Shown here: positions 1 through 5,247 of the stretch, piece by piece
Position numbering within the stretch: position 1 is the first letter of the stretch
Layout of the letters: every line of letters starts with the position of its first letter
Assembly: GCA_903911165.1 (NCBI GenBank)
Contig: CAIWCQ010000522.1
Location: 1 to 6,458 of the forward strand
Direction: 5' to 3'
From: an uncultured Actinomycetes bacterium
GTDB taxonomy: Bacteria > Actinomycetota > Actinomycetes > Mycobacteriales > Mycobacteriaceae
DNA length: 6,458 bases
Notes under the pieces: model-generated
Told to the model about the DNA's origin: nothing
Seen by the model: only the letters and a program-made list of their open reading frames with translations
Database searches by the model: none
Position numbers and translations under genes: made by a program

Positions 1-440
1 GCGTCGAACAGATCGCAGCCGTTGTCCTCCATGCTGATGCCCAGAGCCGCGCACAGGTTGCCCGGCCCGCGTGCCAACGCCCGCGCCGCGACGCTCGATC
101 CGCGCCGGATCTGCGCGATCTCGGTACCGGAGTCGATGATCGCCGCCCGCAGCAACACCGCAGCGGCGGTGCCGTCAGGCCCGCAGGAGACGTTGGCGCA
201 CAGATGAATTCCGTGACTGCGGTAGGTGTAGAGCCTCCCCGGGGGCCCGAACATGACCGCATTGCGCACAGTGGGACCGCGGTAGGAATGAGAGGCGGCA
301 TCGGGCCACGGACCGTCCGGCGGTCCCCCGTAGGCCTCGACCTCGACCACCACGGCACTCACGTCACGGCAGGTGAGTACCGCGCCGAGAAGCAGACGGG
401 CGGCGCTCACCGGGTCGGCGTCCCGCAGTTGCGCCGTCAC
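1..440 (-). CDS. mpg: 3-methyladenine DNA glycosylase (AAG/MPG family), C-terminus cut by window edge
   Basis: Base-excision repair enzyme that removes alkylated purines such as 3-methyladenine from DNA, leaving abasic sites. I translated the minus strand from the GTG at 440; 146 codons lie in the window, and the last roughly 55-60 residues of a usual 200-residue protein are missing. Family landmarks are VEVEAYGG at residues 32-39, where E35 and Y37 match the catalytic Glu and stacking Tyr of human AAG; DAASHSYRG at 47-55 (H51); RN..MFGPPGRLYTY at 59-73; CAN at 81-83; LLRAA at 96-100; and ARGPGNLCAALGI near the left edge. The start is well constrained: an in-frame TGA lies shortly upstream in this frame and no other start codon falls between. 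The GTG shares bases with the stop codon of the upstream desaturase (GTGA at 437-440) and has no clear ribosome-binding site, so translation probably depends on re-initiation. The family call is secure; its link to a pigment operon is probably positional rather than functional. Confidence 0.93.
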   Translation of the reverse strand, partial: MTAQLRDADPVSAARLLLGAVLTCRDVSAVVVEVEAYGGPPDGPWPDAASHSYRGPTVRNAVMFGPPGRLYTYRSHGIHLCANVSCGPDGTAAAVLLRAAIIDSGTEIAQIRRGSSVAARALARGPGNLCAALGISMEDNGCDLFD

Positions 441-1933
441 GTCACAGGAAGTTCGGCCAGCCCCAGATCAGCGCCGAGACAGTCGGCGGCGGCCAGGCCC
501 GACAGCGCGACCATCGGCAGTCCCCCGCCCGGGTGGGCGCTGCCCGAGGCGAGGTAGACACCCGGCAGTCCGGGCACCCGGTTGGGCGGGCGTTTGAAGG
601 CGGCGAAGCGGTCATTGCTGGCGGCGCCGTAGATGGCTCCCCGGCTACCGGGGAAAGCGGCAGCCAGATCCCCCGGGCTGCGCCGCCACATGAGCATATC
701 CCCCTGCGACCATTGATCTGCAGCCTGAATCCGTTGCAGCACAGCGGTTTCCAGCCGATCCCACACCTCAGCCGGCCGCGCACCGGTAGCCGGTTCGGCC
801 GGGGCGTTGGCCATCACAAACACCGGCTCGGCGTCCGTCCAGCCGGCCAGACCGTGGCAGCGTTGCTGGGCACACAGGTAGACGGTGGGCGCGACCGGGG
901 GGCGATCGCGGTCGAAGATGTCGGCGAACTCCGCGTCGTAGTCCGCCGGAAACAGCACCTCGTGCGGTATCCGATCGGCCCGCCGGGCCGCCCGCAGCAC
1001 CCCGTTCCAGGCCGACATCGACGGCGCCGCCGGGCTGGGCAGTTGGCGGGCGGTCCGCGACTCGAGACTGTTACGCAGCCATTCCGCATCGGCGTTGACG
1101 ACCACAGCCCGACCGTGTCGCACGGCACCACCGGCCAACACGACACCGGCGGCAACGCCACCGTCGAGCAGAACTCGATCGACTTCGGCGCCGCATTCGA
1201 TGACACCGCCACTGGTCTCAATCGCCGCAACCAGCGCCTCGACCAACGCGAACACACCACCCTCTATGCCGTATCCGCCGAGCGAAAGCTCAATGTGCGC
1301 AATACAATTGAGTGTTGCCGGGGCATGCCGGGGGTCGCTGCCGTTGTACGTCGCATAGCGGCGCAGGAGCATACGCAGATGCGGATCACGCACCTGGCGG
1401 TCGATTCCGGCAGCCATGCTGCGCAGCGGGTCGACGGCCGCCAGTGCTCGCGGGTGACGCAGAGCCAGACCTGCCATCGCCGTCCACGTCGGGGCCGGGC
1501 CGAGCACGAAGTGCGGTGCGGCCGCCTCCCAGATCCGGCGGCTATAGGCCAAAAAGTCCGCCAGTTCGCCCGCGGCCGCCGGCCCGAGGGCCGACCGGAC
1601 GTTGGCCAGCGTCTGTTCCGCTTCGTGGGCCACATCGAGCACGCATCCGTCGGCGTAGCGGTAGCGAAAGCCGGGGTCGAGGCGGCGCAGGCCGATCACA
1701 TCGGCCAGTCGCAGACCGGCCCGGGCGAACACGTCGGCGAATACCCCGGGCAGGGTGAGCACGCTGGGGCCGGTCTCCACTCTGATCCCGTCGAGTTCGA
1801 CGGTTCCGGCCTTCCCGCCCGGTCGCGGACCCGCCTCGAGCACCCGCACCGCCAGCCCCCGGGCGGCCAGGGCGAGCGCGGCGGCCAGCCCGCCGACACC
1901 GGCGCCGACCACCAGCACCTCGCGCTCAGCCAC
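437..1933 (-). CDS. crtD: FAD-dependent carotenoid desaturase, CrtI superfamily, CrtD-like (probable 3',4'-desaturase)
   Basis: Predicted flavoprotein of 498 residues, the usual size for the CrtI/CrtD family, acting at the membrane on a C40 carotenoid. The N-terminal Rossmann dinucleotide-binding motif is VVGAGVGGLAAA (residues 8-19), followed by VLEAG (E33 for the ribose) and PGGKAG (38-43). ETGPSVLTLPGVF resembles the CrtD form of this segment more than the D-P-F form of phytoene desaturases. The C-terminus has the family signature as ASGSAHPGGGLPMVALSG, then AADCLGADLG. The frame stays open to 2275, but that extension reads against the acyltransferase gene and lacks family sequence; the Rossmann motif should begin within about ten residues of the start, which fits the GTG at 1933. 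That GTG overlaps the acyltransferase stop by 8 bp (1926-1933). Next to a CrtC hydratase, the best assignment is introduction of the 3',4' double bond into a 1'-hydroxylated end group. A CrtP/CrtNb-type oxygenase or another CrtI paralog is the main alternative; sequence by eye does not settle substrate. Confidence 0.87.
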   Translation of the reverse strand: MAEREVLVVGAGVGGLAAALALAARGLAVRVLEAGPRPGGKAGTVELDGIRVETGPSVLTLPGVFADVFARAGLRLADVIGLRRLDPGFRYRYADGCVLDVAHEAEQTLANVRSALGPAAAGELADFLAYSRRIWEAAAPHFVLGPAPTWTAMAGLALRHPRALAAVDPLRSMAAGIDRQVRDPHLRMLLRRYATYNGSDPRHAPATLNCIAHIELSLGGYGIEGGVFALVEALVAAIETSGGVIECGAEVDRVLLDGGVAAGVVLAGGAVRHGRAVVVNADAEWLRNSLESRTARQLPSPAAPSMSAWNGVLRAARRADRIPHEVLFPADYDAEFADIFDRDRPPVAPTVYLCAQQRCHGLAGWTDAEPVFVMANAPAEPATGARPAEVWDRLETAVLQRIQAADQWSQGDMLMWRRSPGDLAAAFPGSRGAIYGAASNDRFAAFKRPPNRVPGLPGVYLASGSAHPGGGLPMVALSGLAAADCLGADLGLAELPVT

Positions 1934-4066: not shown

Positions 4067-5247
4067 ACACGCGCTCCCCCGGATCGCTTGAGCAACCGCG
4101 ACCACCGGCCATTGACATCGCCCGAGAACAGCGGCAGCCACATCGAGTTGGCGCCGACGGCACGGTGCACCCGCATCCGGACCAGCGGCCGCAGCAGGTC
4201 GGTGTCCACCCGGTCCGGCATCAGGTTCTCCCCGATTCCGTAACCTTCATCAGACCCACACCGGCCCCGCAGCAGATACCGCTGATAGAACGGTCCGTTG
4301 TCGAGTACCGAGTCGACGTCGACCCGCACGAGGTGCCCGTCCGGATCGGCGAAGGCGGCGCCGTCCGGCCAGCGCAGGCCCCAGAGGTTGCGGCGCTCGC
4401 GCCCCATCTGCAGAGCGGCCTGTTCACGCGCACGGCAGGTCCCGTCTTCGGCAATCTCGACGACAAGATCGCGCGGCGCTTTTCCGGCCTCCGACGGGAC
4501 GAGCCGGTAGAAGATCAGGTCGCGACCGGGCAGGGCGACCCGACCCCACCACCAACTCTGGATGCCCAGGGACTGCAACGACTGCCCGGCACTGTTGCGA
4601 TCGTGGTAGCCGCGGCCCTCGATCCGTAACTCCCCGCCCGGGGTGTCCAGTTCCAGACCACCCCGGCTGGCGGCCATCATCGGCGTCCACTGGTGCGTGC
4701 AGGTGTCGAGGGATCCGCGGCCGAGTCCCGGCGGGGAAACATCACCGCCCGCCGCGTCGGGCAGGTCGCGCCGCAGCGGACCAGACAGCCACAACTTCCC
4801 GGTGGCCCGGCCGCCGGTGGGCAGGGCCAGGTCGAGGGTCGCCTGCAGCGTGCGGATCGAGACGCCGCCGGCCACCGCGGGGGTGTCGGTCCAGGAGAAG
4901 GAGCAGTCGCCCATCCGCCAGGAGGAGCCGTCCGCACCCCAGGTGCACTCATCGGTGGGGAGCTCGGAAAGCAGGTAGAAGCGCTCGCGGCCGCCCTCAT
5001 AGACGACCAGGTTGACGCTGGGCCGCTGCAACGGAAGGCGCGGCCGACCGGTGCGCGCGGACTGCGCGTACCCGGGCAGGAACGGCAGCCCCCACGACCA
5101 GATGAGCGTCGCGGCTCGGCCGTGGTCGTCGACCAGATCGACATAGAACCAGGTGAATCCGCCCGGGCTGCGCAGGACGGCGGGGTCTGGCGCGCAGTCG
5201 GCGGAACTTAACGTGATCAGGACGCCTCCGGGATCCGGCCCGGGCAC
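4063..5247 (-). CDS. crtC: Carotenoid 1,2-hydratase (hydroxyneurosporene synthase family, CrtC)
   Basis: Predicted cofactor-independent hydratase that adds water to the terminal C-1,2 double bond of an acyclic carotenoid end, giving a tertiary 1-hydroxyl. From the GTG at 5247 it has 394 residues, close to bacterial CrtC length. Family features are PGGFTWFYVDLVDDHGR (residues 28-44), corresponding to the GGY.WWYVD...DGR region of proteobacterial CrtC; NLVVYEGGRERFYLLSE (79-95); THQW (184-187); RGYHDRN (212-218); and WWWGR (232-236). H185, W187, Y214 and D216 appear to match His, Trp, Tyr and Asp residues reported, from memory, as important in Rubrivivax CrtC, the Asp being the proposed proton donor. 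Start choice is uncertain: a GTG at 5316 in frame would add 23 residues, but 8 of those 23 codons end in A or T, unlike the rest of the gene, so I prefer 5247. No signal peptide is obvious. The 3' end overlaps the glycosyltransferase by ATGA. This is the first gene of the pigment cassette and defines its chemistry. Confidence 0.9.
   Translation of the reverse strand: MPGPDPGGVLITLSSADCAPDPAVLRSPGGFTWFYVDLVDDHGRAATLIWSWGLPFLPGYAQSARTGRPRLPLQRPSVNLVVYEGGRERFYLLSELPTDECTWGADGSSWRMGDCSFSWTDTPAVAGGVSIRTLQATLDLALPTGGRATGKLWLSGPLRRDLPDAAGGDVSPPGLGRGSLDTCTHQWTPMMAASRGGLELDTPGGELRIEGRGYHDRNSAGQSLQSLGIQSWWWGRVALPGRDLIFYRLVPSEAGKAPRDLVVEIAEDGTCRAREQAALQMGRERRNLWGLRWPDGAAFADPDGHLVRVDVDSVLDNGPFYQRYLLRGRCGSDEGYGIGENLMPDRVDTDLLRPLVRMRVHRAVGANSMWLPLFSGDVNGRWSRLLKRSGGARV
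4074..4080 (-). promoter_or_regulatory. Shine-Dalgarno site for the glycosyltransferase gene
   Basis: GGGGGAG on the minus strand, 7 nt before the ATG at 4066, within the end of crtC. It decides between this ATG and the further upstream ATG at 4141 in the same frame. Confidence 0.6.

What the first reader, a model, noticed from the sequence alone, without database searches (positions are those of the whole stretch)
437..5247. Compact operon for an acylated glycosyl carotenoid end group (phleixanthophyll-ester type)
Seen: consecutive overlapping genes for a CrtC-family hydratase, a membrane GT2, a PlsC-type acyltransferase and a CrtD-like desaturase. Known: phleixanthophyll and its fatty acid esters in mycobacteria and nocardiae are tertiary 1'-glucosides with a 3',4' double bond, and CrtC, CruC and CruD perform hydration, glycosylation and acylation in green sulfur bacteria. 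Inferred: these four genes are the end-group tailoring set for such a pigment. To my knowledge the glycosyl and acyl transfer steps are poorly assigned in mycobacteria.
Basis: partly seen in the sequence, partly recalled or inferred. Interest (0 to 1): 0.72.

Follow-up and report, generated by a model that had tools for sequence, protein, structure and literature searches.

The report
Mycobacterial operon for acyl-glycosyl carotenoid ends
Four overlapping genes in an uncultured, small-genome mycobacterium are predicted to add water, a double bond, a sugar and a fatty acid to one end of a carotenoid pigment; the same gene set recurs in related uncultured mycobacteria, while other mycobacteria likely build such a sugar end with an unrelated hydratase.

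Summary
The four genes are real, overlap by 4-8 bases and occupy 5247-437, minus strand. In 24 related loci the order CrtC > GT2 > acyltransferase > CrtD is kept at every readable junction (19/19, 16/16, 13/13). CrtC keeps the four residues essential in purple-bacterial CrtC. CrtD groups with CrtD, not CrtI. The GT lies outside HpnB, with GTs of carotenoid clusters that also hold an acyltransferase; such a pair was proven by deletion in Methylobacterium extorquens (PMC10448405 passages). The genome has crtI, crtB, a crtE-like gene and a CrtY-type cyclase on other contigs. So the end-group reading is well supported. "Phleixanthophyll of mycobacteria" is not: CrtC was found in 7 of 198 sampled genomes of the genus, all small drafts, and no 2'-hydroxylase is recognised in the window. 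A second module, CruF + GT + CrtD, is in all 10 loci opened out of 23 other genomes with a related GT, a better lead for glucosides elsewhere in the genus. Chemistry known; host and arrangement new.

The parts
4063..5247 (-). CrtC-type carotenoid 1,2-hydratase (394 aa, GTG start)
   Evidence: NF045922 54.9 bits, below cut-off; H186, W188, Y215, D217 (numbering of window:4066-5250) invariant in a 30-row alignment and in an 11-row alignment with 6 alphaproteobacterial plasmid CrtCs, at the places of the residues essential in R. gelatinosus CrtC (PMC4717167 passages); fold
2783..4066 (-). GT2 glycosyltransferase of carotenoid-cluster type
   Evidence: PF00535; D102-D103-x-S105, D158-A-D160 and V-D272-D273 invariant in 17 rows; tree and HpnB scores
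1926..2786 (-). PlsC-fold acyltransferase with NHVAWWD and PQGR motifs
   Evidence: PF01553 40.3 bits; both motifs invariant in 15 rows; carotenoid-cluster homologues; tree 81/64
437..1933 (-). CrtD-type 1-hydroxycarotenoid 3,4-desaturase
   Evidence: NF045637 362 bits, below cut-off of 580; 7 mycobacterial with 6 alphaproteobacterial CrtDs 100/99
1..440 (-). neighbour, cut by contig end: 3-methyladenine DNA glycosylase (mpg), overlaps crtD by 4 bases; not part of the pathway
   Evidence: PF02245 and NF002003 over cut-off; mpg near the operon in 10 of 24 related loci, 9 upstream and 1 downstream
5339..6458 (-). neighbour, 5' end cut: aldehyde dehydrogenase; not a conserved neighbour
   Evidence: PF00171 438 bits; upstream in 2 of 24 related loci, directly in 1

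Best explanation
Four overlapping genes (CrtC-type hydratase, GT2 glycosyltransferase, PlsC-fold acyltransferase, CrtD-type desaturase) form a compact, likely co-transcribed set that would turn the open end of a probably monocyclic C40 carotenoid into an acylated glycoside. Shown by calls: the genes, their order in relatives, the family placement of CrtC, CrtD and the GT, and crtI, crtB, a crtE-like gene and a CrtY-type cyclase elsewhere in the genome. Inferred: lycopene is closed at one end to gamma-carotene; CrtC would add water across C1'-C2'; CrtD would introduce the 3',4' double bond; the GT would put a hexose, probably glucose, on the tertiary 1'-OH; the acyltransferase would esterify the sugar with a fatty acid. 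The product would be the non-hydroxylated kind reported for Myxococcus and Chloroflexus, not phleixanthophyll. A CrtU-like oxidase and a Rieske protein in the backbone cluster would perhaps make the ring end aromatic and oxidise it. Role, inferred: membrane-anchored protection against light and oxidants.
For: Gene order kept at 19/19, 16/16 and 13/13 readable junctions of 24 related loci. CrtC catalytic residues and a fold whose 26 PDB matches at E <= 1e-3 are AttH, kievitone hydratase, Diels-Alderase-type pericyclases and 25-phosphosteroid lyase. CrtD with CrtD 100/99. GT apart from HpnB 100/100; 138-151 bits to the HpnB model for three window-type GTs against 444-532 for four comparison HpnBs. 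All 7 plasmid records matched by the acyltransferase at E <= 0.01 also hold the GT match within 0.4 kb. Deletion proof for such a GT + acyltransferase pair in M. extorquens; CrtC, CruC, CruD in C. tepidum; [quoted passage not shown] Backbone genes in own genome.
Against: No chemistry and no expression data. The set is on a different contig from the backbone genes. CrtC is under the library cut-offs, CrtD under its equivalog cut-off. Acyltransferase tree support is weak (81/64) and its plasmid matches cover only 37-50% of the query. With CruF-linked CrtDs added, the group of window-type and alphaproteobacterial CrtDs falls to 76/73. Co-occurrence with crtI does not discriminate; one operon genome (G023, 80% complete) shows no strong crtI. 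In G030 no cyclase was found: crtYcd is reduced to a fragment without a Pfam match and there is no CrtY, so a cyclic substrate is not certain in every carrier.
Confidence: 0.82

Rival explanations
1. The operon makes phleixanthophyll ester itself: same steps plus a 2'-hydroxylase encoded elsewhere in the genome.
For: The end group is otherwise the same; PMC5822342 lists phleixanthophyll of Nocardia kirovani among monocyclic carotenoid glycoside esters (passages).
Against: No 2'-hydroxylase among the six genes of the window; CrtC found in 7 of 198 genus genomes, while a CruF-based module is in other members.
Confidence: 0.1
2. The substrate is acyclic (lycopene or neurosporene) and the product a psi,psi acyl glycoside.
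For: Among plasmid records CrtC and CrtD match those of alphaproteobacterial phototrophy clusters best, whose substrates are acyclic (recalled); in G030 no cyclase was found.
Against: Of the 7 operon genomes, G042, G134 and G189 have crtYcd next to crtB and G000 and G108 have CrtY; only G030 seems to lack both, and G023 is undetermined (no crt cluster found, no CrtY).
Confidence: 0.12
3. It is a membrane glycolipid or hopanoid operon: HpnB-like GT and PlsC-type acyltransferase build a lipid, and the CrtC- and CrtD-like proteins act on a non-carotenoid isoprenoid.
For: HpnB is the best NCBIfam match of the GT (138 bits) and the acyltransferase matches the 1-acylglycerol-3-phosphate model (41.8 bits).
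Against: Both are far under their cut-offs (379 and 103); comparison HpnBs score 444-532 and are separated 100/100 from the GT; holding GT and HpnB together costs 9.8 log units, p-AU 0.043, a mild rejection. CrtD clade 100/99.
Confidence: 0.04

Closest known systems
[quoted passage not shown]
   Same: CrtC, CrtD, a predicted GT (orf6) and a putative acyltransferase (orf9) proposed for the same end group of gamma-carotene
   Different: There linked to backbone and cyclase genes, GT and acyltransferase apart; here a stand-alone CrtC-GT-AT-CrtD set. No sequence comparison with Myxococcus was made.
Chlorobaculum tepidum CrtC, CruC, CruD (PMC6166724, passages)
   Same: Hydration, glucosylation and acylation of gamma-carotene
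   Different: CrtD is not among the three enzymes named there; the gene sets were not compared by sequence
Methylobacterium extorquens META1p3663 / META1p3664 (PMC10448405, abstract and passages)
   Same: Neighbouring GT and lysophospholipid-type acyltransferase; deletion and complementation show that they glycosylate and acylate a carotenoid. GTs of alphaproteobacterial clusters with two CrtI-family genes, acyltransferase and GT group with the window GT (96/92)
   Different: C30 dicarboxylic acid substrate, ester linkage, no CrtC; META1p3663 itself was not in the tree
Rhodococcus pathway with CrtC, CruC and CruD, cited to Osawa et al. 2011 in a review (PMC7502451, passage; the original not seen)
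   Same: Same three enzyme names, same order of bacteria (Mycobacteriales)
   Different: Gene arrangement and sequences not seen here; my order-level search found no further CrtC of the window's type (2 of 397)
CruF + GT + CrtD module of other members of the genus (this work, L134-L143)
   Same: Hydratase, related GT (35-39% identity) and CrtD-like desaturase
   Different: Membrane hydratase CruF (PF04240) instead of CrtC; no homologue of the window's acyltransferase in the 10 loci; CrtU-like gene beside it in 8 of 10

Membership tests
CrtC carotenoid 1,2-hydratase | Catalytic H-x-W and Y-x-D residues | tested here: met
   H186, W188, Y215, D217 invariant; essential residues from PMC4717167 passages
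CrtC carotenoid 1,2-hydratase | AttH/CrtC-like fold (superfamily link recalled) | tested here: met
   Model pLDDT 81; 26 PDB matches at E <= 1e-3, query TM-scores only 0.40-0.52
CrtC carotenoid 1,2-hydratase | Score over curated model cut-off | tested here: not met
   No Pfam match, NF045922 54.9 of 400 bits; PF07143 no match in own genome, but its control rang nowhere. A limit of the models rather than a biochemical feature; hence called CrtC-type, divergent
CrtC carotenoid 1,2-hydratase | Hydration of the C1-C2 double bond | not testable with these tools
   needs assay
CrtD 1-hydroxycarotenoid 3,4-desaturase | Groups with CrtD, apart from CrtI and CrtN | tested here: met
   100/99 with 6 alphaproteobacterial CrtDs, five annotated and one named by me; with CruF-linked CrtDs added the wider split is 93/94
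CrtD 1-hydroxycarotenoid 3,4-desaturase | Score over NF045637 cut-off | tested here: not met
   362 of 580 bits
HpnB hopanoid GT | Score over cut-off and inside HpnB clade | tested here: not met
   138.4 of 379 bits; outside, 100/100
Carotenoid-cluster GT (CruC / META1p3663 type) | Groups with GTs of carotenoid clusters | tested here: met
   CruC and META1p3663 themselves not in the tree
CruG 2'-O-glycosyltransferase | NF045692 cut-off | tested here: not met
   107.3 of 600 bits
Carotenoid sugar acyltransferase (CruD / META1p3664 type) | Groups with acyltransferases of carotenoid clusters against the genome's own PlsC paralogues | tested here: inconclusive
   81/64; 7 of 7 plasmid matches sit beside the GT match; NHxxWWD in 9 of 9 window-type and 8 of 9 carotenoid-cluster acyltransferases, 0 of 7 own paralogues, noticed after the fact
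Phleixanthophyll pathway | 2'-hydroxylase with the set | tested here: inconclusive
   none among the six genes of the window; rest of the genome not searched for it

The most novel reading that the evidence does not exclude
The genus Mycobacterium has built the same glycosylated carotenoid end twice with unrelated hydratases: a CrtC operon with its own acyltransferase in small-genome uncultured mycobacteria, and a CruF + GT + CrtD module in a larger set of other members. In the first group the molecule is double-ended: an aromatic ring oxidised by CrtU and a CruH-like Rieske protein at one end, an acyl sugar at the other, a hybrid pigment not met in the paper searches made here. The second module would then be the missing gene set of the phleixanthophyll-type glucosides.
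Probability: 0.25. Interest if true: 0.65.

Novelty: new member of a known kind. Interest (0 to 1): 0.45.

Why it matters
It names testable genes for sugar and acyl transfer to carotenoids in mycobacteria. In ten library searches (open-licence papers only, listings read and some papers opened by passage) I saw no such assignment in Mycobacterium; a Rhodococcus pathway with CrtC, CruC and CruD is cited in a review. It also shows two unrelated hydratase families beside related GT and CrtD genes within one genus, and it points to the CruF module as the better lead for glucosides outside the small-genome group.

Tried and rejected
Phleixanthophyll ester as the product: rejected as first choice (no 2'-hydroxylase recognised in the window, 7 of 198 distribution).

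HpnB / hopanoid reading of the GT: rejected on scores and tree.

Aldehyde dehydrogenase at 5339-6458 as a pathway gene (several carotenoid clusters have one near GT and acyltransferase): rejected, upstream in only 2 of 24 related loci, though many flanks are short.

Distant CrtC outside the genus: the order-level search gave 2 of 397 (own genome and a 36-bit match), the phylum-level one 3 of 396 (own and two 36-bit matches); the three weak loci show no GT, acyltransferase or CrtD homologue beside them. The first look scored only 4 candidates per genome there (9 in the genus search), so distant homologues may be missed.

PF07143 in own genome: no match, and its control rang nowhere, so uninformative. 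Solved structures by sequence: nothing useful. A first GT tree held four long-branched rows (Rhodococcus, Picosynechococcus, Pseudonocardia, Acaryochloris) and was poorly resolved; those four rows were dropped. Paper not held: PMC2593218.

Rows left out: 29 of the 120 listed CrtC relatives (of 401 hits) were aligned with the window's; 16 of 19 loci with a GT (three cut off) and 14 of 16 with an acyltransferase (L014 cut off, L033 split) were aligned; trees used 7 of these GTs, 8 acyltransferases and 6 of 13 CrtDs plus the window's own. 10 of the 23 genomes with a related GT were opened; 8 of the 10 GTs and 7 of the 10 CrtDs went into the trees. Three further genomes with partial or weak GT matches (62-100 bits) were not opened. 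Of 17 plasmid regions opened around GT matches, 8 are carotenoid clusters, 1 is a hopanoid cluster, 4 show no carotenoid gene and 4 are unannotated; Niallia (unannotated) was counted with the carotenoid GTs, and three unannotated ones were called HpnB by score.
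Full report
What is there. The window is one whole 6458-base contig (C522) of a 3.14 Mb genome in 524 contigs, 97.6% complete. On the minus strand run, in order, an aldehyde dehydrogenase cut at its 5' end, a CrtC-type hydratase (5247-4063), a GT2 (4066-2783), a PlsC-fold acyltransferase (2786-1926), a CrtD-type desaturase (1933-437) and a cut DNA glycosylase (from 440). The overlaps are 4, 4, 8 and 4 bases, so the five genes from crtC to mpg are probably translationally coupled (inference).

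Conservation. A pattern scan of the genome-contig collection with the CrtC protein, which finds close relatives only, gave 24 loci, all titled MAG. Where the contig continues more than 250 bases past crtC, GT2 follows in 19 of 19; where it continues past GT2, the acyltransferase follows in 16 of 16; where it continues past the acyltransferase, CrtD follows in 13 of 13 (in the remaining loci the contig ends within 250 bases). mpg lies upstream in 9 and downstream in 1 of the 24. The aldehyde dehydrogenase is upstream in 2.

CrtC. Library scores are low, but H186, W188, Y215 and D217 are invariant in a 30-row alignment and in one with six plasmid-borne alphaproteobacterial CrtCs: four annotated as carotenoid 1,2-hydratase beside crtD in photosynthesis gene clusters, a fifth annotated hydroxyneurosporene dehydrogenase beside crtD, the sixth unannotated. 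PMC4717167 (passages) reports that H239, W241, Y266 and D268 of R. gelatinosus CrtC are each needed for activity. The predicted model (mean pLDDT 81) matches AttH, kievitone hydratase, Diels-Alderase-type pericyclases and 25-phosphosteroid lyase: these are all 26 matches at E <= 1e-3, with modest TM-scores. That these form one superfamily with CrtC is recalled.

CrtD. Seven mycobacterial sequences and six alphaproteobacterial CrtDs form one side of a branch at 100/99 against CrtI and CrtN types. Of nine plasmid records matched at E <= 1e-20, six are annotated CrtD.

GT2. NCBIfam's best match is HpnB at 138 bits, but four comparison HpnBs score 444-532 and four GTs from carotenoid clusters score 95-142. 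In a 21-row tree eight window-type GTs and nine carotenoid-type GTs are split from the four HpnBs at 100/100. Eight of the nine come from annotated carotenoid clusters (Limimaricola, Azospirillum, Deinococcus, Thermus, Palleronia, Cytobacillus, Gluconobacter, Microvirga); in all eight an acyltransferase gene is next to the GT or one gene away.

Acyltransferase. At E <= 0.01 it matched seven plasmid records, and all seven also carry the GT match within 0.4 kb. The tree against the genome's seven other PlsC-family proteins puts it with the carotenoid-cluster enzymes, at only 81/64. In M. extorquens AM1, deletion of the neighbouring GT and lysophospholipid-type acyltransferase genes stopped glycosylation and acylation of a C30 carotenoid (PMC10448405, abstract and passages). 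In E. coli a Planococcus GT of such a cluster glucosylates a hydroxylated carotenoid (PMC8502411, passages).

Backbone in the same genome. Contig C258 holds a crtE-like gene, crtI, crtB, a methyltransferase, a CrtU/HpnE-like oxidase and a Rieske + DUF5914 protein. Four relatives whose frames were scanned have a heterodimeric lycopene cyclase gene (PF18916) right after crtB (L050, L051, L054, L060), and similar frames were seen by eye in L055 and L058. In this genome that pair is gone: crtB overlaps the methyltransferase, PF18916 finds nothing while its control rings, and a CrtY-type cyclase sits on contig C308 (PF05834 211 bits). CrtY was found in 3 of 14 genomes searched. The names CrtU and CruH for the last two genes of C258 are recalled from the synechoxanthin pathway; PMC8342508 (passages) describes CruH as the oxidase of the ring methyl. 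They were not tested by sequence.

Distribution. With a 30-row profile, CrtC is in 7 of 198 sampled genomes of the genus at E <= 1e-10, all drafts of 2.5-4.0 Mb. Six of the seven have a full-strength crtI (over 500 bits) and a second crtI-family match; the seventh is 80% complete and has only a CrtD-like match. About 129 of the 191 others also have a strong crtI, so this is agreement, not proof. The GT profile finds the operon GT in the same seven (750-779 bits in six, two pieces of 132 and 64 bits at contig ends in G189), a distinct relative (199-242 bits) in 23 others, and weak or partial matches in three more. Of the 23, 21 are 5.2-7.1 Mb.

The second module. I opened 10 of those 23. In 10 of 10 the GT is next to a CrtD-like gene and a CruF homologue lies beside the GT (tblastn 10 of 10, the query's own locus included; PF04240 in 5 of 6 frames scanned, the sixth having been taken from the wrong strand). 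A CrtU-like gene follows in 8 of 10. The window's acyltransferase has no homologue at E <= 1e-5 in any of the 10 stretches of 14-16 kb. No genome of the 198 has both CrtC and this GT, but with 7 and 23 carriers the chance overlap is under one, so exclusion is not shown. The two GT groups join at 91/91 with a long-branch warning; the CrtD groups are not resolved (window-type with alphaproteobacterial 76/73; window-type with CruF-linked not rejected, p-AU 0.396).

Reading. The operon most likely finishes the open end of a monocyclic carotenoid as an acyl glycoside, the non-hydroxylated type reported for Myxococcus and Chloroflexus (PMC5822342, passages). All function is inferred from sequence.

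Noticed in passing
L134-L143 (10 genomes of the genus): A second carotenoid end-group module, CruF (PF04240) beside GT2 + CrtD-like, mostly next to a CrtU-like gene, without a homologue of the window's acyltransferase: a candidate for the glucosides of other mycobacteria.
   Followed up: partly
window 3464-3538 and 2137-2217: In-frame GC-rich tandem repeats (units of 18 and 15 bases, both giving Pro-Val-Gly-Gly) sit in the GT2 and acyltransferase genes; the GT2 insert is shared only with L014 (91% identical GT) among 16 aligned relatives, the acyltransferase insert is in none of 14 aligned relatives.
   Followed up: partly
L011:6340 (own genome C258) against L050, L051, L054, L060: The lycopene cyclase pair crtYcd is missing after crtB in this genome and only a fragment seems left in L052, while a CrtY-type cyclase lies on contig C308: cyclase turnover in carriers of the operon.
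   Followed up: partly
   Followed up: no
L033:12405-13125 and L017:13210-14470: The acyltransferase (L033) and CrtD (L017) matches are split into two pieces, perhaps frameshifts or assembly errors; left as they are.
   Followed up: no
CrtC proteins P0001-P0119: 119 of 120 listed relatives carry precomputed Pfam PF27123; a member scanned against the Pfam copy held here matched nothing (P0022). The name of PF27123 is unknown to me.
   Followed up: no
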